Positions 14,755 to 39,299 of a DNA stretch of 44,792 nucleotides are shown one piece after another; position 1 is the first letter of the stretch; each line of letters begins with the position of its first letter. A program made the translations under genes and the position numbers. The notes under the pieces were generated by a model. That model saw only the letters and a program-made list of their open reading frames with translations, had not been told where the DNA came from and made no database searches. Source of the DNA: a virus; IMG/VR virus record IMGVR_UViG_3300046558_000079, positions 1-44,792 of that record, one strand, 5' to 3'.

Positions 14755-15337
14755 GAATAAAATTTCCTTTACCTTTAAAATGGTTCTCTACAATTTCTCT
14801 AACCTGCTGCTGCGTGTCTTCAATTTCGACATTGACGACTTCGTAATCACATTTTAAAGATTCCATAAGTTTTTCTGATTCATGGTTGTCGGTGTTGTAG
14901 AATTTCGGGCGTCTAACTCTGATCATAATGCCATCTCTTTCTCTGACAGCGTCTACTTCATCGGGGAAGCGAACATCACTCACCGCAACTAGGTCTAGGT
15001 CAGCCATTTTCCGTTCCCAACCACTGATCCAGAAGTTTTTCCCCATAATATTTCTGCCCCACTCCGTGCCAAGAGTTTGCATCGCGAAGCGGAATTCTTT
15101 ATTATTGAAATATCTACTCCTGTGATCCTTGTACCAGTCATCGGTATAGAGATCAGTATTTTCGACGCCATTATATTCGAGCCACGCCGTGAGCATTGAC
15201 TTCAATCCGCCAGCGAAAGGAACATCGACATAACCTAGGTCTGCCAAAGCTTCGGCGCATGTCCCTTTTCCTGAGCGTTTATAACCGCAAAAACCAACGA
15301 TGCGTTTATCAATGAATTTAAATTTCTTCTCTGCCAT
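14747..15337 (-). CDS. Deoxynucleoside monophosphate kinase (T4 gp1-like)
   Basis: A 196-residue P-loop kinase phosphorylating dNMPs to dNDPs. The Walker A motif is GYKRSGKGT (~18-26). The TLGTEWGRN block and the VSDVRFPDEVDAVRERDG block are characteristic of phage dNMP kinases related to T4 gene 1. It lies between the helicase (one-base stop/start overlap at 15337) and thyX (8-base overlap), so it would act on the product of ThyX and on nucleotides from host DNA breakdown. Confidence 0.88.
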   Translation of the reverse strand: MAEKKFKFIDKRIVGFCGYKRSGKGTCAEALADLGYVDVPFAGGLKSMLTAWLEYNGVENTDLYTDDWYKDHRSRYFNNKEFRFAMQTLGTEWGRNIMGKNFWISGWERKMADLDLVAVSDVRFPDEVDAVRERDGIMIRVRRPKFYNTDNHESEKLMESLKCDYEVVNVEIEDTQQQVREIVENHFKGKGNFIRD

Positions 15338-16671
15338 TAAATTACCACTGTTAATTTATCTGCGGCTCTTGTCACAGCTGTATATCGCCACTTGTCAATA
15401 TCATCCCTGAAAACATAACCTTCGTCATGCACCACGACATGGCTCCATTGCGATCCCTGACTTAGATGAGTCGTGATGCAATGGCCCCAATCGACGTGAT
15501 GCTGTTTTTTCTTCGCCTCAAACACTTCCTTCTTGTCGCCAGTGAAATATCCGGCTTGCCTTCCGTAATGTTCTTCGAACAGAGCTTGACAAACTGTGAT
15601 GTTTCTAACGACACCATCTTCATCCGTGGCATTCATATAGAATGTGGCACGGCCCTCAACCAATTCGTAATCTTTATTATTTGTTAGGAACATGCCATTG
15701 ACAAGTTCTTTAGCGACTCTTGAATTTTTACGAACGATGAGTGGTTCGCCAGCCATTGGACCAACGAGATCATAACCAGCTGCTTTGCGAATTTTCTTCG
15801 TAAGTTTCCAACGTGTGGCATTTGTACCACAAAGCACTTGGACTTCTTTGTCCATATCTAGTGTGTCTTCGTCATCTCTCTTACGAACAATATCAACAGT
15901 CTCGCCCCACGTTCCAACTTCCAGTTCACCACCTTCTCTGATATGTGTGGCTAATGCGATGATCGGATTATCTTTGGCCTGCCTGTGAATCTCAGTCAGG
16001 AATACATCAGGAGTGCCGATGCAAAATCCGGGATTATCTTTAACGGGCTGAAGCTGTCCCGGATCACCAATTGCTAGAATTGGAATACCAAAAGATTTTA
16101 AATCATCGCGAATCATCTCACCAACCATAGACGCTTCGTCCACAATGATGAGTGAAGCTTCGCGAATCGATCCTTCAGTATTGAGGTGCCAAGTCGGCCC
16201 ATCGGTCGAAATGTAAGCCTTGTCCAAATCTTCGTTTAAAAGTTTGAGGGTGCGCTGAGCATCTTTTAGATTGTACTTCTTGCCTTCAAAGAAAACATCT
16301 GGCGCGCTGAATTCAGCAGCTGAACTAAGTGCTTTACCAAGATCAGCGATTTTATATTCGAGCACTTCAGCCTTTAGAGCTTTGGGTCTATAGATCGCGG
16401 AATGAATCGTGCTAGGGATAATATCTACACCAGCGTCACGCAGTTTTTTGCCCGCCACCCGAGCAGCCTTCCCCGTAGGGGTGACAACAAAGACTTCGGT
16501 CGTGGTCAGGCCGCAAGCTTCAACAATAAAAGGGAGAATTGCTGTTTTACCTGAACCGGCATAACCGCCTAGATAGCAAGGCTTTGGCTCTTCTTCAGTT
16601 TGGGCTTTTTTAAACCATGCCACTACTTTTTTGACTGCGGCATTTTGGTGGTCAGTTAGGGTAATTGACAT
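15337..16671 (-). CDS. SF1 DNA helicase, Dda/RecD-like
   Basis: A 444-residue superfamily 1B (5'-3') helicase. Motif I is GGYAGSGKT (~34-42), motif II is VDEASM, motif III is GDPGQLQPV, the HRQ of motif IV is visible, and the C-terminal motifs TTHLSQGSQW and YTAVTRAADKL correspond to V and VI. The length and order match T4 Dda-type helicases, which drive replication initiation and fork restart. The start has a clear Shine-Dalgarno (AAGAAGGAG). Upstream are an intrinsic terminator and a structured element, so expression may be controlled by readthrough from the ssb-like gene. Confidence 0.9.
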   Translation of the reverse strand: MSITLTDHQNAAVKKVVAWFKKAQTEEEPKPCYLGGYAGSGKTAILPFIVEACGLTTTEVFVVTPTGKAARVAGKKLRDAGVDIIPSTIHSAIYRPKALKAEVLEYKIADLGKALSSAAEFSAPDVFFEGKKYNLKDAQRTLKLLNEDLDKAYISTDGPTWHLNTEGSIREASLIIVDEASMVGEMIRDDLKSFGIPILAIGDPGQLQPVKDNPGFCIGTPDVFLTEIHRQAKDNPIIALATHIREGGELEVGTWGETVDIVRKRDDEDTLDMDKEVQVLCGTNATRWKLTKKIRKAAGYDLVGPMAGEPLIVRKNSRVAKELVNGMFLTNNKDYELVEGRATFYMNATDEDGVVRNITVCQALFEEHYGRQAGYFTGDKKEVFEAKKKQHHVDWGHCITTHLSQGSQWSHVVVHDEGYVFRDDIDKWRYTAVTRAADKLTVVI

Positions 16672-16697
16672 AGCAATCTCCTTCTTAAGTCATAAAT

Positions 16698-16721
16698 AAA
16701 AGGGCTCAGAATAGCCCTTTT
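16698..16721 (-). terminator. Intrinsic terminator / attenuator between ssb-like gene and helicase
   Basis: A perfect 9-bp stem, AAAAGGGCT/AGCCCTTTT, has the 6-base loop CAGAAT (16707-16712); on the - strand it is followed by TTTTATTTATG. It lies between the ssb-like stop (16831) and the helicase start (16671). On the - strand RNA its 5' arm contains AAAGGG, which is complementary to CCCUUU at 16753-16748 in the element just upstream, so an anti-terminator pairing is possible. Confidence 0.85.
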
Positions 16722-16728
16722 ATTTTCA

Positions 16729-16805
16729 GAAGATTTGAAACACCTTGAAAGGGTTGCCGTTAGCGTCCCAACTCACTTAAGGTTGGATGACCGTTTCAAA
16801 TCTTC
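16729..16805 (-). ncRNA. Structured RNA element with a 13-bp closing stem (candidate cis-regulator or sRNA)
   Basis: On the - strand, 16805-16793 (starting GAAGATTTGAAAC) pairs perfectly over 13 bases with 16741-16729, enclosing 51 bases. Inside is a second perfect hairpin, CCAAC/GTTGG with a 9-base loop, then a single-stranded GACGCTAACGGCAACCC segment and a short ACC/GGT hairpin. The element ends 8 bases before an intrinsic terminator. This layout (closed aptamer-like domain, linker, terminator) is what a riboswitch-type attenuator or a processed 3'-UTR sRNA looks like. I could not assign a known class. Another inverted repeat, TTTCTAAG/CTTAGAAA (16813-16837), overlaps the ssb-like stop codon. 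Confidence 0.6.
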
Positions 16806-16830: not shown

Positions 16831-17622
16831 TTAGAAACGACGGCGACGACCACCGGTAGCAGCGGCTTCTTCGGCCTTCTTTTCTACTACCTTTTCTTCC
16901 TTGACTACTTCTTCATCTGCCTCGGATGAATCGCCTTCATCTTCGTCATAGTTAGAAGCGTCATTCTCGCCACCATACTTCTCTTCAAGCTCTGTTTCGC
17001 TGATCCAGCCAACGATAGTGAACTTCGGAGCGTATGCCTTTTCCTTCTTCTTCGCACCCTTCGGCGTGAATTCAGTGGCCTCGAACTTTACGATGGGAAG
17101 AAGTTCTTCGCCATTCTCAATGTTCTGACCCTTCTGAATCGCCTTACCGTAAGCCGCTAGGAGATTACCAAAGGCGCGAATACCAGACTTTGAGCTATTC
17201 TTCAGGAGGAGCTTTTCACCTTCAGCATCACCACCGCCTTCAAGTACAGCGACTTCGAAGCTGATCTGCTGCTGCCAACCATCATCGTCATCATCGTAAG
17301 GACCGTGATCCTCAAGCTGACCCTTTGGCGTCGGATTACCGTCGAGGATGCGAGTCATATCTTCGCCAACGACTTCAGAATCCTTCCAGCAAATATGGCC
17401 CTGCTTAGCAGAATTCATATTTACAGCGCCTTCCCAACCGTCATCAAGTTCGTCCTTTTCAGCACCGTAGGTATAATCGCCGGTCTTGCCGCTGAAACCA
17501 GCGAAAGTGAGGCCATCATTACCGCCACCGAGTGAGGACGCAGCGCTTAGGAACGGGTTGCCAGAGGCTGCACCAGCGTTAGCGACTGCATTGTTGTTAC
17601 GGGTTGTAAGTTCATTTGCCAT
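16831..17622 (-). CDS. Putative single-stranded DNA-binding protein
   Basis: A 263-residue acidic protein. The N-terminus (~1-35) is low-complexity. The core (~40-215) is a predicted beta-rich domain with aromatic/charged segments (DGWQQQISFEVAVLEGG, KKKEKAYAPKFTIVGWISE). The C-terminus is strongly acidic (NYDEDEGDSSEADEE), then Lys/Glu-rich, ending GGRRRRF with a terminal Phe. An acidic tail ending in an aromatic residue is typical of phage SSBs that recruit replication partners. It is encoded between the helicase and a Cas4-like nuclease, as expected for a replication protein. Its leader has the pseudoknot-plus-repeat layout of T4 gene 32, which supports the SSB reading. I do not see a classic bacterial SSB signature, so the function is inferred. 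Confidence 0.6.
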   Translation of the reverse strand: MANELTTRNNNAVANAGAASGNPFLSAASSLGGGNDGLTFAGFSGKTGDYTYGAEKDELDDGWEGAVNMNSAKQGHICWKDSEVVGEDMTRILDGNPTPKGQLEDHGPYDDDDDGWQQQISFEVAVLEGGGDAEGEKLLLKNSSKSGIRAFGNLLAAYGKAIQKGQNIENGEELLPIVKFEATEFTPKGAKKKEKAYAPKFTIVGWISETELEEKYGGENDASNYDEDEGDSSEADEEVVKEEKVVEKKAEEAAATGGRRRRF

Positions 17623-17720
17623 GTTATAATTTTCTCGTTTCTTAGTTTCTTGTTTAACGTTTCGATGTTTATGTCTCTACAGTCTTTTATTTTTTTAAAT
17701 CTCCTAGAGACGATTGGAGT
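17623..17720 (-). promoter_or_regulatory. ssb-like leader: H-type pseudoknot plus AAAC repeats
   Basis: In the - strand RNA, stem 1 is CUCC (17719-17716) with GGAG (17704-17701). Stem 2 is GUCUCUA (17711-17705) with UAGAGAC (17679-17673). Loop 1 is AAUC, no base separates stem 2's first strand from GGAG, and a 21-base A-rich loop crosses stem 1: a textbook H-type pseudoknot. Then comes an unstructured A-rich run with AAAC at 17670, 17662, 17655, 17648 and 17640, spaced 8, 7, 7 and 8 bases, up to the start codon. The layout matches the T4 gene 32 autoregulatory leader. No clear promoter was seen in this gap. Confidence 0.65.
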
Positions 17721-17954
17721 TTAAATCTTGTCCTGACTTAGTAGTGCCTTGACCGCATCAAGTGTTGCAGGGTCCATACCATCTTCAAAACCAGCAACTA
17801 GAGCGGTGACGGTGGCATATACTGCGGCGTTAAAATCTTCTTCTGATGAGCCTCGCGCCTCTGCCGCCGTGGCACGATCAGTGATACACTCAATGATCGC
17901 GTTAGCCAGTTCTTCCATAAGTTCTACTACTTTGTCGTCGTTTAGCTTTACCAT
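17721..17954 (-). CDS. Small acidic helical hypothetical protein
   Basis: A 77-residue protein, mostly helical and acidic (VVELMEELANAIIECITDR, then FNAAVYATVTALVAGFEDG). I recognise no family. Its start overlaps the stop of the Cas4-like gene (TAATG) and it is followed by the ssb-like leader, so it is probably co-transcribed with both. Confidence 0.72.
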   Translation of the reverse strand: MVKLNDDKVVELMEELANAIIECITDRATAAEARGSSEEDFNAAVYATVTALVAGFEDGMDPATLDAVKALLSQDKI

Positions 17955-19045
17955 TACTTAACTTTCTTTGTCGTGACACGGAGAACTTCAAACCCTTCGC
18001 CCTCTTTTTCATAGAGCGTTAGATCAATTCCATCCTCAATCATTTTTTCTTTATCTAGACCGGTACGGCCCTTCTGCGTAGAATAAGTAACGCCCCATGA
18101 ACCATCGGTTGCTTTTAGATTTCTTGTGCCGAGCTTCTTCAGGAATTCTTTCATTTCGACGCGGATTCGTTCTTCGTCCATTTCCGCAAGTTTCTTGCGT
18201 TCCTTGGCTTCTTGTTCCGCCTCGACTAGCTTGCCCATGATAACGCGATCTTTTTCAAGCGCTGTTTTATCGAATGATTCTTGTGGCACAGCAGCCAGAT
18301 TGAGACCGTTACATTGCTTGGCCCATGGGCAAAGTTTACATGCCCCTGTGATCTTACCTTCAGCCGGTAGATCGGAAGGTTCTTTAGCCGCAAACACTTT
18401 CTTTGACCTGACCTTAGCCGCTTCGTAAGTCTTTTCATCGAAGCGAATTACGAAAGGTGTGATGTTGTCGAGGAAGGAAGCATCAACGTAAAGAATGACG
18501 CCGTAGCGGGGCTTGAAATCAGTTTGATCGCGGATTAGACCGATCTGGATATTAACCTGTCCACGGTGAATCGCTTTTTCTTCCGTGAGGGAGACGCGAG
18601 GATCGATTGACTTGACTTCGACCGTGATACAATCACTTTCGATATCATCAATGCCATAAAGGCTGAGCGCGTCACGTTCTAGATTTGCGAGCAAGCCGTC
18701 TGGCGTTGCAGATAAGCGATTCTCTTCGTCCAAGAAGGTGGTTTGATCCTGCTGACCCGCACCGATTAGATCGATACCTTCAGGAAGACCAAGTTCGAGT
18801 GCAGGTACGACATAGAAATCTTCGATAAGATTTCCGCGTTCCATCGCGCCCCAAGACTGAGAATAATCCGCGTCTTGTTCGTAATCCTTCTTCTTGAAGT
18901 ATGCCTTTCTGAGACAATCAAATGCCTCAGACGCGCCCATAGAAAGTTTACGGTCGTACATCCACTTCTTTTGTTTGCTCTCATGAGCCATGTAGTTATT
19001 AAAGATTTTATCGAAATCTAAAATTTTGGAACCTGTTACTGCCAT
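17954..19045 (-). CDS. Cas4/RecB-like PD-(D/E)XK exonuclease with Fe-S cysteines
   Basis: A 363-residue nuclease of the PD-(D/E)XK superfamily. The catalytic residues are visible: Asp in SATPDGLL and the Glu-x-Lys in ITVEVKSI, with a downstream RGQVNIQIGL helix (QxxxY-like region). Cysteines at ~42 (FDCLRKAYF) and in the GACKLCPWAKQC cluster (~240-251) are arranged like the four-Cys iron-sulphur site of Cas4/AddB-type nucleases. The C-terminal ~100 residues are charged, with a helical section. It lies next to the SSB-like protein and a DnaQ-like exonuclease, so a role in end-processing, recombination or host DNA breakdown is likely. There is no CRISPR array or other Cas gene in the window. 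Confidence 0.85.
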   Translation of the reverse strand: MAVTGSKILDFDKIFNNYMAHESKQKKWMYDRKLSMGASEAFDCLRKAYFKKKDYEQDADYSQSWGAMERGNLIEDFYVVPALELGLPEGIDLIGAGQQDQTTFLDEENRLSATPDGLLANLERDALSLYGIDDIESDCITVEVKSIDPRVSLTEEKAIHRGQVNIQIGLIRDQTDFKPRYGVILYVDASFLDNITPFVIRFDEKTYEAAKVRSKKVFAAKEPSDLPAEGKITGACKLCPWAKQCNGLNLAAVPQESFDKTALEKDRVIMGKLVEAEQEAKERKKLAEMDEERIRVEMKEFLKKLGTRNLKATDGSWGVTYSTQKGRTGLDKEKMIEDGIDLTLYEKEGEGFEVLRVTTKKVK

Positions 19046-25734: not shown

Positions 25735-26493
25735 TTAATTTTCTTTAATCCTCTTCATCATTTCAGCGCCGTTTGATCTAACGATTCTGTAACGCCCTGT
25801 TCTATTTATGATTTTCGCTACATGGCCAAAAAGTTCGTATTCGCGCGAACTAGGCACAACAATTTCTTCTTTATAAAAATAAACACCCAGCATTGCGTCA
25901 TCGCCGTAGGCGTGCCAAACATTGATATCGCGTTCTTTCAGCATGGCTTTAATTTGCTGAACACTGACACCGTTTAACTGCTTCTGGCTCCACAACGATT
26001 GAGCGACTTGCTGATACGCGTTTGTGGCGCAATCAATGAACCTGAACCTCTTGCTATCTGTCGCGACATTCTCTGGTCCGCCATAGACACGGCAGTCAAA
26101 ACCATTATAGTTTGTGACCTTATATCCTTGAATTAATTTATAAAATTCTGTGGAACAGTAGCTTGCCATCAGAGTTGCGAGCTTCACGACGCGACCTGAG
26201 TGTGGATGCTCGACCCAACCAGTTCCGTTACGGTTCTGGCGAGGGTGCCAGATCAAAGTTATTTCATCGCTTTGGGTATAACTTTCAGTCGCGCCGAAAC
26301 GTTCCATCAACAGCTTTGTCACATCTGCCATTGTCTCACGTAGCGTAGCGTCGAATGGGCGAGTCAGCCCCTTGGTGAAGTTGTGAAACCCATGCCCATC
26401 CAATCGAGCCACCATGTATTGGTCAGCCGGGATATAAGTTTCGACGCTATCTTCCAGCGTTTTTAAATAATCAAACTCTGCTAAATTTTTCAT
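25735..26493 (-). CDS. Thg1-like 3'-5' RNA polymerase (tRNA-His guanylyltransferase family)
   Basis: A 252-residue member of the Thg1 family, which adds nucleotides to tRNA 5' ends in the 3'-to-5' direction. The first metal-binding motif is ARLDGHGFHNFTKGL (Asp ~30) and the second is YTQSDEITLIW, both diagnostic of the family. The FDCRVYGGPENVATD block also fits. Bacterial and phage relatives (Thg1-like proteins) repair 5'-truncated tRNAs rather than adding G-1. GAGG lies 6 bases before the ATG, and the gene overlaps the end of the BCS1-like gene by 23 bases, so the two are co-translated. Together with RNA ligases, kinase and RlaP further right, it suggests tRNA repair. Confidence 0.9.
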   Translation of the reverse strand: MKNLAEFDYLKTLEDSVETYIPADQYMVARLDGHGFHNFTKGLTRPFDATLRETMADVTKLLMERFGATESYTQSDEITLIWHPRQNRNGTGWVEHPHSGRVVKLATLMASYCSTEFYKLIQGYKVTNYNGFDCRVYGGPENVATDSKRFRFIDCATNAYQQVAQSLWSQKQLNGVSVQQIKAMLKERDINVWHAYGDDAMLGVYFYKEEIVVPSSREYELFGHVAKIINRTGRYRIVRSNGAEMMKRIKEN

Positions 26494-35811: not shown

Positions 35812-35939
35812 CAGATTTGTCTCCAAACATATTCTGACGATGGCCATTTTCTGGCCCATTCATGTAGTTCGCTCAATGAGGCAAATTCGTTTGCAATATC
35901 AAATGAACCGTCAAACATTACCCAAGCAATTTGGAACAT
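35811..35939 (-). CDS. Small hypothetical protein (42 aa)
   Basis: A 42-codon gene found by reading the gap. Both ends are coupled by TGATG: its ATG shares the A of the upstream stop at 35939, and its stop shares the next ATG at 35811. It is rich in Trp and Phe (FQIAWVMFDGSFDIANEFAS). No family is recognised. Confidence 0.62.
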   Translation of the reverse strand: MFQIAWVMFDGSFDIANEFASLSELHEWARKWPSSEYVWRQI

Positions 35940-36490
35940 CACATCACCTTAGTAAATCGAGGCAATGCGAGGCCAGTACCACAGGTCCACGTAATTCCAG
36001 CGCCAGTTCTATAATTGTACGAGCCGATTTCGATGCCAGCTATTTCGAAGTCGGTATCTGTCTCGGTCTCGTTTTCGAACGTCCAATAAATAGTTTTATT
36101 AGTTAAAGTTTTAAAGAAGTTGTACGCATCTCTGCGGATTTTGTTGTACGGGTCTTGGGCGGTTCCGAAATGAAACAATTCGACCTTCATAAAATATTTT
36201 TGATGAAGGTCATCGAGAACCGGCTCATTTCTGAAACATGGGGAGCAGGCAACATAATATTGATCTTCGATCAGTTCGCCATCAACAGCCATTTGGATCA
36301 TAGATTGTTCAGCCGAGCCGACAAACACGCCATCTTCAAACGGATATGCCCTATCGGGGCTAGGGCAAGTCAGTGCCGAAATTTCTGGCCTGACGTGCCA
36401 CGGTACACATATCTCCACATAACCCTTATCTTTATAAAAGTCAAGAGCTTTAGCGATTAGATCGTAACGAATTAGGTTATCGTCTTCCAT
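35939..36490 (-). CDS. Miniature class II aminoacyl-tRNA-synthetase-like protein (SerRS-like)
   Basis: A 183-residue protein that looks like a stripped-down class II aaRS catalytic core, closest to SerRS. The motif 1 region is DKGYVEICVPWHVRPEI (Pro30). Motif 2 is ACSPCFRNEP (Arg87, Glu89), followed by KYFMKVELFHFG, which matches the SerRS 'HQFEKVE(L/M)F' block. EIGSYNYR resembles the SerRS ATP/serine pocket (EISSCSN), and the C-terminal CGTGLALPRF (Gly171, Arg178) matches motif 3. There is no tRNA-binding coiled-coil arm and the normal SerRS is over twice as long. It might aminoacylate a carrier, make a nucleotide adduct, or act on tRNA ends. GAGAG lies 5 bases before the ATG. Confidence 0.75.
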   Translation of the reverse strand: MEDDNLIRYDLIAKALDFYKDKGYVEICVPWHVRPEISALTCPSPDRAYPFEDGVFVGSAEQSMIQMAVDGELIEDQYYVACSPCFRNEPVLDDLHQKYFMKVELFHFGTAQDPYNKIRRDAYNFFKTLTNKTIYWTFENETETDTDFEIAGIEIGSYNYRTGAGITWTCGTGLALPRFTKVM

Positions 36491-37312: not shown

Positions 37313-37787
37313 TCTTGTTGCTCCAAGAAATGGGCGTCGTGTCAAGCAGTTCCCATGTCGAAAGCTTGTTATCTGCAAATGCAGCAATCGCCGCATCCCG
37401 AGTTAGATACACACCATCGTCAAAGAAAATGTCATTGAAATCTGTGTCGCGAATCACGTTGATGAAGCCAGAGGTTTCCAAGACCTTAACAAAGCCATCA
37501 TCCTCAATATCTTCTAGGCATTCGAATAGCGAGATAGAGTTGTCGCTAAACTTAGCAACGATCTGACCAAACTCCGAAACATAAATTACTTCGATTTCAC
37601 CGGCTAGGGTGTCGTAGAATCGATCACCGACAACGACTTCACCACTATCAGGAGTGGTCGGAGCGCCAGCCACAGGAGCTTCTGCCCCGCTTAAGTCATA
37701 AGAAATGTTATAAAAATCGCTTCCGTGGACTTGACTCAATGATTCAAGATCGAAAACTACGTAATCATTAAAAGACTCGTTAGACAT
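37305..37787 (-). CDS. Hypothetical acidic protein
   Basis: A 160-residue acidic protein, beta-rich in the centre (GDRFYDTLAGEIEVIYVSEF) with a flexible Pro/Gly/Ala linker (APVAGAPTTPDSG) before it. No family is recognised. It shares its start base with the stop of the RNA ligase (37787), so it is co-translated. Confidence 0.68.
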   Translation of the reverse strand: MSNESFNDYVVFDLESLSQVHGSDFYNISYDLSGAEAPVAGAPTTPDSGEVVVGDRFYDTLAGEIEVIYVSEFGQIVAKFSDNSISLFECLEDIEDDGFVKVLETSGFINVIRDTDFNDIFFDDGVYLTRDAAIAAFADNKLSTWELLDTTPISWSNKND

Positions 37788-38836
37788 TACAAATTCCTCT
37801 CAGTTGCGAGGATATACCAATCTCTCGCTTGTTGATTTACTGCTTTAGAAACGTTCTTCCAATCAAGGCCAGAAGCTTCCAACTCATTCACAGATTCTTT
37901 CTGCACGTCTTGGCCGATCCACTTCATGAATGCGCCCATATTCTTCATCACAGCTTCCCCGCCGCAAGCCTCAGTCACGCCTTGTTCGCAACGGCCTTGA
38001 GTGACAAACTCCTTGGCAAAAGCCGCTGAGCCTTCTAGCACGGCTGGATCGATTTGAATCGAAACCTTCTTCTCAGAGGAAGAGACGTGATGGCTCTCAC
38101 CCTTAGCCTTGAAAAGAAAATCGCTGTAAACATCGAAGTCTAAAGAATCAATTGGATCAAGAGGCACAAAAACATAACCCTCACCAATGCCTTCAATTCC
38201 GTATCGATCTTTAATGTAAGGATCGACTTTGTCACAAGCTTCGACCAAAGAAGTCACTTCCTTGGTGAAACGCTCCATAGAGCTTTGCAGCCTGAAATCT
38301 ACGACAAATTCTTCCGTTCCCCAAGGGATTGTCTCAAAGACATTGTGCTTGTTAAAGACGTAATCAATTCCGCTCTTATCCAGCATCACATAATTACTTC
38401 TGTCACTTCCGCTAGGAATTCTAGGCTCGCCGGGAAGAGCTTCTAACATAACAGCGTGAGGAAGATGCGCAGCGAACACAAAGAAAGTCTTCTTGGCAAT
38501 TTGAGATACAGCCACTTTCTTTTGAATACCGGGACCGGCCCATTCACCATAAAGGATGTAGGTCCAAGGATAAACAATAAGTTTATCTTTTACAGTCTCC
38601 ACCCAATTAGCGAATCCTGCATTATCGTTCTCGACGTTGCAAACCCCGGTTCTTTTGAAGCAAGTCACTGTCCCATCTGGATCGACTCTGATCCCGGCGT
38701 TCGTGCCATGAAGTTTTACCTTGCCACGGTACAACACCTTTGGTCGATTGTCAAGTTCGAATCGACGCTTGACCGTGGCATTCACACTTGAAAACGCTTC
38801 GATAGAAGGGAATTTAATAAATTTTCCTGTCGTCAT
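37787..38836 (-). CDS. RNA ligase, T4 Rnl2-like
   Basis: A 349-residue RNA ligase of the Rnl2 family, sealing 3'-OH to 5'-phosphate ends via a lysyl-AMP intermediate. Motif I is KVKLHGTNAG (Lys41, counted from the ATG at 38836). Motif III is ILYGEWAGPG, motif IV is GIGEGYVFVP, and motif V is FLFKAKGESH. Length and motif order match T4 Rnl2 (334 residues). I chose 38836 because the ligase domain begins there; the frame is open to 38899. Downstream, ~90 residues form a helical C-terminal domain. It lies beside a HAD phosphatase and near a 5'-kinase, giving a split end-healing and sealing set. Confidence 0.9.
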   Translation of the reverse strand: MTTGKFIKFPSIEAFSSVNATVKRRFELDNRPKVLYRGKVKLHGTNAGIRVDPDGTVTCFKRTGVCNVENDNAGFANWVETVKDKLIVYPWTYILYGEWAGPGIQKKVAVSQIAKKTFFVFAAHLPHAVMLEALPGEPRIPSGSDRSNYVMLDKSGIDYVFNKHNVFETIPWGTEEFVVDFRLQSSMERFTKEVTSLVEACDKVDPYIKDRYGIEGIGEGYVFVPLDPIDSLDFDVYSDFLFKAKGESHHVSSSEKKVSIQIDPAVLEGSAAFAKEFVTQGRCEQGVTEACGGEAVMKNMGAFMKWIGQDVQKESVNELEASGLDWKNVSKAVNQQARDWYILATERNL

Positions 38837-39299
38837 TTTGGGATAAACTTTCAATAACTTTACGCATATCAGCCTCACCCTTCTTTCTGAAAAGTTCACC
38901 GGATTGTCGTACTAATAAATTTTTAATATATTCGGAACTATCTTCGAAACTTAATTGATAGGTATCGATCTGATAATAACTTCGAAGCGGCTCAGCACTC
39001 AAACTAATGCGAGTGATGGGGCGTTGGTCGGCAATTTCTTGCTGCCTAAACGAATATTTGTAGTCCGGGAACGGGACGTAACGCGGACCCTTATTAAATT
39101 GAAACTCTTCTAACTCGGCTAAATTTCTGGTGGTCTCGTAAAGTTCGAAACTTTTAATAGTGTACTTTTCTTCTAGGTATTCGTATCTGTGCCGTGGCAC
39201 AAAAGGCCAAATAATATTGATTGCTTTATTTAGGCCCGTTGCCAACCAGATGCCGAACGGTGTGACTGTCTCCGGGTCCGTTTTGAATATCTTGATCAT
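38814..39299 (-). CDS. Hypothetical protein
   Basis: A protein of about 161 residues from the ATG at 39299; in-frame ATGs at 39317 and 39341 and a TTG at 39356 are alternatives, and all overlap the HAD gene. The N-terminus has a moderately hydrophobic stretch (PFGIWLATGLNKAINIIWPF), then a helical region (YEYLEEKYTIKSFELYETTR) and a charged C-terminus. No family is recognised. It overlaps the RNA ligase start by about 23 bases. Confidence 0.58.
   Translation of the reverse strand: MIKIFKTDPETVTPFGIWLATGLNKAINIIWPFVPRHRYEYLEEKYTIKSFELYETTRNLAELEEFQFNKGPRYVPFPDYKYSFRQQEIADQRPITRISLSAEPLRSYYQIDTYQLSFEDSSEYIKNLLVRQSGELFRKKGEADMRKVIESLSQNDDRKIY

What the first reader, a model, noticed from the sequence alone, without database searches (positions are those of the whole stretch)
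17623..17720. T4 gene 32-like autoregulatory leader on the putative ssb mRNA
The leader RNA of the 263-residue acidic protein can fold into an H-type pseudoknot with coaxial stems (CUCC/GGAG, GUCUCUA/UAGAGAC) and an A-rich 21-base crossing loop. It is followed by an unstructured run of five AAAC units at 7-8 base spacing up to near the start codon. T4 gp32 represses its own translation by nucleating at a leader pseudoknot and binding cooperatively along A/U-rich RNA with a ~7-base site. The same logic in an unrelated-looking phage protein would support its identity as an SSB and show convergent regulation.
Basis: partly seen in the sequence, partly recalled or inferred. Interest (0 to 1): 0.83.

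Follow-up and report, generated by a model that had tools for sequence, protein, structure and literature searches.

The report
Covarying RNA pseudoknot before SSB-like phage gene
Just upstream of a phage gene that probably makes its single-stranded-DNA-binding protein, the messenger RNA carries an evolutionarily conserved knot followed by an evenly spaced A-rich repeat tract, the same layout that phage T4 uses to let its SSB switch off its own synthesis, but attached to a protein family with no detectable sequence relation to the T4 one.

Summary
The minus-strand leader at 17719-17673 can form an H-type pseudoknot: S1 CUCC/GGAG, S2 GUCUCUA/UAGAGAC, 4-nt L1, no junction base, 21-nt A-rich L3. 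Five AAAC units follow at 8,7,7,8-nt spacing. Three homologous leaders (proteins 93, 83 and 67% identical) keep S2 = 7 bp, L1 = 4 nt, junction = 0. In the most divergent, S1 is replaced throughout and S2 partly, yet both still pair: 6 of 12 pairs change on both sides, 0/500 shuffles match. The same scanner recovers T4's known pseudoknot (also 4+7 bp, no junction base). The AAAC tract is the only one of its density in 44.8 kb. The protein's confident AlphaFold core resembles SSB OB folds, T4/RB69 gp32 among the top five (weak, Z about 6.5); it has a charged, Glu/Asp-rich tail and sits in a conserved replication block in phages without another recognised SSB. By sequence it is not gp32, Enc34-type or canonical SSB. 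Best reading: an autogenous translational operator, gene-32-like in design, in an unrelated protein family. RNA structure is near certain; repression by the protein itself is inferred and untested.

The parts
17716..17719 (-). S1 5' arm, CUCC (UCUCC in L002, UCCCU in L003, CAGUAAGUU in L023)
17712..17715 (-). L1, AAUC; 4 nt in all four leaders (AAUC, AAUU, ACUC, AAUC)
17705..17711 (-). S2 5' arm, GUCUCUA (GUCGUUA in L023)
17701..17704 (-). S1 3' arm, GGAG, directly abutting S2 (coaxial geometry)
17680..17700 (-). L3, A-rich crossing loop, 21 nt (19, 19 and 12 nt in relatives)
17673..17679 (-). S2 3' arm, UAGAGAC (UGACGAC in L023)
17623..17672 (-). 50-nt A-rich (58% A), mostly unpaired tract with five AAAC units at 8,7,7,8 nt, running to the start codon
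17721..17723 (-). Stop codon of the upstream 77-aa ORF, 1 nt before S1; a terminating ribosome would cover S1
16831..17622 (-). 263-aa SSB-like protein (PHROG 9528), predicted OB-like core with a charged Glu/Asp-rich tail and RRRRF tip
17954..19045 (-). RecE/Cas4-like exonuclease, conserved neighbour of this gene
15337..16671 (-). Dda/RecD-like helicase, conserved neighbour of this gene

Best explanation
The leader is an autogenous translational operator of a phage SSB. The pseudoknot, about 50-97 nt upstream of the start codon, is a nucleation site for the SSB. When the protein exceeds the available single-stranded DNA, it binds the knot and fills the adjacent unstructured AAAC-spaced tract cooperatively up to the start codon, blocking ribosome entry. 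Shown by computation: the knot, its covariation, the spaced tract, and their position before the start codon. Inferred: SSB activity, RNA binding, cooperativity, repression.
For: Knot geometry (S2 7 bp, L1 4 nt, junction 0) is identical in four leaders, with 6/12 pairs changed on both sides and 0/500 shuffles as high; all four leaders are at or below 2e-4 in shuffles. The scanner's best hit in the T4 gene 32 leader lies at the published position, -67, with S1 4 bp, S2 7 bp, junction 0 (position per PMC3014915). The AAAC array is significant in the window and recurs in relatives; the tract is accessible. Protein: confident core; ranks 2-6 of the solved-structure alignment are RB69 gp32, T4 gp32, gp32-Dda, RB69 gp32 and PRD1 SSB. 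The replication block (DNA polymerase, exonucleases, this gene, Dda/RecD helicase, dNMP kinase, ThyX) is conserved across distant phages. No PF00436, gp32 or Enc34-type SSB was found in eight complete phage genomes that carry this family or in the window; positive controls for the last two families ring in T4 and Enc34. T4 and RB69 operators are a pseudoknot followed by more than 40 nt of less structured UUAAA repeats over the RBS (PMC535899).
Against: Only four leaders, three of them close; most covariation comes from L023. No binding or expression data. The repeat is AAAC, not UUAAA, so recognition differs or the tract has another role. Many distant homologs' leaders show no convincing knot. 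The structural match is weak (Z about 6.5; the top row is the phiC31 RDF at 8.7). A-rich leaders can also simply aid ribosome loading.
Confidence: 0.62

Rival explanations
1. The knot and A-rich tract are a protein-independent translation element (ribosome standby or enhancer, or insulation and coupling after the upstream stop codon) that gives strong SSB synthesis without feedback.
For: S1 starts 1 nt after the upstream stop codon, and in L023 S1 includes it; there is no strong Shine-Dalgarno; A-rich unpaired leaders favour initiation (general knowledge).
Against: Does not explain by itself why the knot keeps its geometry through double changes, or the regular 7-8-nt spacing; no other gene in the window has such a tract.
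Confidence: 0.22
2. The leader is an operator or switch read by another factor (host protein, other phage protein or small molecule), for example a pseudoknot riboswitch.
For: Small H-type knots occur in riboswitches (general knowledge).
Against: No Rfam family reaches its threshold; the best is GP20-a at 14 bits against a gathering score of 47.2. L3 varies in length and sequence between relatives, unlike a typical ligand pocket.
Confidence: 0.1
3. The gene encodes a single-strand annealing recombinase (RecT- or gp2.5-like role) that works with the RecE-like exonuclease, with or without autoregulation.
For: It follows a RecE-like exonuclease in the family.
Against: Fold neighbours are mostly SSBs, and no RecT, Erf or Red-beta family hit was found. 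SSB and annealing roles are not exclusive.
Confidence: 0.15
4. The inverted repeat GTCTCTA/TAGAGAC acts at the DNA level (regulator site).
For: Perfect 7-bp arms.
Against: Interleaved with S1, and arm sequences change with pairing preserved in L023; a DNA site would keep sequence, not pairing. No promoter-like match near it.
Confidence: 0.03

Closest known systems
T4/RB69 gene 32 translational operator (T4-type phages)
   Same: H-type pseudoknot upstream of a phage SSB start codon, 4-bp S1 and 7-bp S2 with no junction base in T4 too, next to the upstream gene's end, followed by 40-50 nt of A-rich short repeats over the initiation region.
   Different: AAAC units instead of UUAAA; L1 4 nt instead of 1; L3 12-21 nt instead of 5; knot further upstream (-97 against -67); the regulated protein is not homologous to gp32 by sequence and lacks the Zn-site cysteines.
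Enc34 SSB / DUF2815 (PF10991), T7 gp2.5-type SSBs
   Same: Phage SSB with an acidic tail, encoded directly after an exonuclease in the replication block (PMC5686142).
   Different: No profile-profile match (probability 1.5%).
PHROG 9528 ('nucleotidyltransferase') proteins of Caulobacter, Brevundimonas, Sphingobium and other phages
   Same: Same protein family, same gene order.
   Different: Most of their leaders have GC-rich hairpins or other short-motif arrays rather than this knot.
T4 gene 43 (DNA polymerase) RNA operator
   Same: Autogenous operator of a replication protein.
   Different: A hairpin, not a pseudoknot (PMC3014915).

Membership tests
Gene 32-type autogenous operator | H-type pseudoknot upstream of the SSB start codon | tested here: met
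   positive control T4
Gene 32-type autogenous operator | Adjacent unstructured A/U-rich repeat tract reaching the ribosome-binding site | tested here: met
   (AAAC units, 0.73-0.82 unpaired)
Gene 32-type autogenous operator | Repeats are UUAAA/UAAA | tested here: not met
   Repeats are AAAC; UUAAA occurs once in the 50-nt tract (sequence)
Gene 32-type autogenous operator | Encoded protein binds the leader and represses its own translation | not testable with these tools
   Needs binding and expression assays
gp32 protein family (PF08804) | Sequence homology to gp32 | tested here: not met
   HHalign probability 0.1%; no PF08804 match while T4 rings
gp32 protein family (PF08804) | Zn-binding Cys/His subdomain | tested here: not met
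   The 263-aa protein has a single cysteine, C78 (sequence)
gp32 protein family (PF08804) | gp32-like core fold | tested here: inconclusive
   VIA-align Z 6.6 (2a1k) and 6.5 (1gpc), below the level that stands out; Foldseek E about 0.1
Phage SSB (function class) | OB-type fold | tested here: inconclusive
   Core pLDDT above 90; SSB OB folds fill ranks 2-6, but Z is 4-7
Phage SSB (function class) | Acidic C-terminal tail | tested here: met
   Glu/Asp-rich tail, with an unusual basic-aromatic tip (RGRRF type)
Phage SSB (function class) | ssDNA binding | not testable with these tools
   Needs purified protein
Enc34 SSB (PF10991) | Sequence homology | tested here: not met
   Enc34 rings
Any Rfam 15 family | Score at or above the gathering threshold | tested here: not met

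The most novel reading that the evidence does not exclude
Autogenous RNA operators are a general, fast-evolving property of this whole phage SSB family. Each clade pairs its SSB with its own short-motif array in the leader (AAAC here; CUAAG in CcrSC, UUAG/CUAG in Gurke, an 8-nt ACUAAGGC-type repeat in L044, CAAAC in L083), with a pseudoknot or hairpin as nucleator. It would be a second, independently evolved gene-32-like regulatory lineage in which protein-operator co-evolution can be read.
Probability: 0.35. Interest if true: 0.78.

Novelty: new variant of a known kind. Interest (0 to 1): 0.64.

Why it matters
T4 gene 32 is the textbook case of a DNA-binding protein that gauges free ssDNA by repressing its own mRNA, and among T4-like phages the knot is not even universal (PMC535899). 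An equivalent layout on a protein family with no sequence relation to gp32 would show that this feedback design arises repeatedly. It would also give an SSB annotation to a family now labelled 'nucleotidyltransferase', and a comparative set for the open question of how a sequence-indifferent SSB picks out its own mRNA.

Tried and rejected
Nested folding alone gives no signal. -1 frameshift signal: UUUAAAC precedes the knot but is in the wrong frame for the upstream ORF (its codons are AUU UAA) and is absent from relatives. Promoter or terminator inside the leader: no scan match there. Riboswitch or other known RNA: no Rfam match. Homology to gp32 and Enc34 SSB by profiles: none. A DNA pattern search for the knot core found only the two close relatives; plasmids gave none, genome contigs only a distant homolog, L084. 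Automatic alignment misplaced the S1 3' arm of L023, so pairs were counted on knot cores with L3 removed. Knots scored in distant leaders are mostly hairpins with a doubtful second stem; L025 and perhaps L083, L045 and L008 look worth testing. A single family-wide motif (YAAG/YTAG) was tried: counts are only modestly over shuffles (136 against 93), though 5-8-nt spacings are 50 against about 9.5. A motif-free period test was significant for 6 of 37 leaders against 1 of 61 control gaps. A structure job on the upstream 77-aa ORF was uninformative.

Full report
What is there. The minus strand between the stop of a 77-aa ORF (17721) and the start of the 263-aa gene (17622) holds, in order, CUCC-AAUC-GUCUCUA-GGAG-(21 nt A-rich)-UAGAGAC, then 50 nt with five AAAC units spaced 8,7,7,8 nt. 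The window is a whole viral record of 44,792 bases; no named phage matches its central 24 kb at DNA level.

Is it more than chance? An H-type layout with stems at least as stable was reached by 1 of 5000 dinucleotide shuffles for the window and by none of 5000 for each of three relatives. Comparable knots by energy do occur elsewhere in the 44.8 kb (33 clusters on both strands), so the case rests on conservation. Scans of viral contigs gave relatives with 93, 83 and 67% identical proteins. Their leaders keep L1 at 4 nt, junction at 0 and S2 at 7 bp; S1 is 4, 5, 5 and 9 bp in window, L002, L003 and L023. In L023 S1 is CAGUAAGUU/GACUUAUUG and S2 GUCGUUA/UGACGAC. Counted on the knot core: 97.9% of cells pair, 6 of 12 pairs change on both sides, none of 500 shuffles reach this, and sliding the partners drops pairing to 33-50%. 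Limits: four sequences, most changes come from one of them, the cores were lined up by the structure, and the fifth S1 pair is A/A in the window.

The tract. The AAAC array is the only stretch with five or more AAAC per 50 nt in the window, and the 50 nt before this gene are the most A-rich before any listed gene. Spacing P-values are below 5e-5, 0.0014, 0.01 and 0.0155 for window, L002, L003 and L023. The tract is predicted mostly unpaired.

The protein. It belongs to PHROG 9528, named 'nucleotidyltransferase', with no Pfam match. The model has a confident core (about residues 39-218). Solved-structure alignment puts phiC31 RDF first (Z 8.7), then RB69 and T4 gp32 cores (6.6, 6.5), gp32-Dda, RB69 gp32 and PRD1 SSB. 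These Z-values are modest and Foldseek gives no match below 0.001 in the PDB, so this is support, not proof. Homologs sit between a RecE/Cas4-like exonuclease and a Dda/RecD helicase in Caulobacter, Brevundimonas, Sphingobium, Citromicrobium, Mesorhizobium and Microcystis phages, sometimes with small ORFs between. Eight such complete genomes and the window lack PF00436, gp32 and Enc34-type SSBs (controls 117, 118). No other SSB showed among the main window ORFs scanned. Members have a charged tail, Glu/Asp-rich in the window clade, most with an RGRRF-like tip.

Comparison with T4. The same scanner run on the T4 leader returns UGCC-A-GCUAUGA-GGUA-AAGUG-UCAUAGC at -67, the position given in the literature (PMC3014915). 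T4 and RB69 use a knot plus more than 40 nt of UUAAA repeats over the ribosome site; both parts are needed for T4 repression (PMC535899). The window matches in layout, stem lengths and position next to the upstream gene's end, but differs in repeat sequence, loop lengths and protein family (HHalign probability 0.1%). So it works like a gene 32 operator in design; the protein is not a member of the gp32 family by sequence; and repression is not yet shown.

Wider family. Most distant homologs lack this knot. Yet in CcrSC and Gurke the leader of this gene has the densest short-motif array among the gaps examined (CUAAG-type 6.9 per 100 nt against at most 0.7 elsewhere except one 59-nt gap at 5.1; UUAG/CUAG 7.3 against at most 1.7 on the same strand). 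L044 has 8-nt units, and L083 has CAAAC repeats after a small knot-like fold. A motif-free periodicity test was significant in 6 of 37 leaders against 1 of 61 control gaps. This hints that clade-specific arrays before this gene are a family trait, but motifs were chosen after looking and the leaders are not independent, so it stays a hypothesis.

Noticed in passing
window 16731-16803 (-): A 13-bp stem (GAAGAUUUGAAAC/GUUUCAAAUCUUC) encloses a ~50-nt core (GGUCAUCCAACC...GGCAACCC) just after the SSB-like gene; the core is kept in L002 with a changed stem end, absent in L003 and L023, and has no Rfam match at threshold.
   Followed up: partly
window 16695-16719 (-): AAAAGGGCU/AGCCCUUUU hairpin with a U-rich end, a likely terminator, conserved in L002 and L003; L023 has a different hairpin there.
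   Followed up: partly
L044, about 40 nt before its start codon: The leader of a distant homolog is an array of 8-nt units (ACUAAGGC type, YAAG spacing 8,8,8,8).
   Followed up: partly
L196:19476-19692 and L197:21005-21278: In jumbo phages CcrSC and Gurke the leader of this gene has a dense CUAAG- or UUAG/CUAG-motif array not seen in nearly all other gaps examined.
   Followed up: partly
L008 (Sphingobium phage Lacusarx), 57 nt before the start codon: Compact candidate pseudoknot CCCG-U-GGUCGG-CGGG-UAAU-CCGACC, shuffle p 0.047.
   Followed up: no
window 25735-26493, 35939-36490, 37787-38899 (-): PHROG matches to a tRNA-His guanylyltransferase, a protein labelled histidyl-tRNA synthetase and an RNA ligase in one phage record that has no tRNA gene by ARAGORN.
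   Followed up: no
window 16831-17622 (-), PHROG 9528: The name 'nucleotidyltransferase' (and 'polyribonucleotide nucleotidyltransferase' in many phage records) looks like a carried-over misannotation of an SSB-like family.
   Followed up: partly
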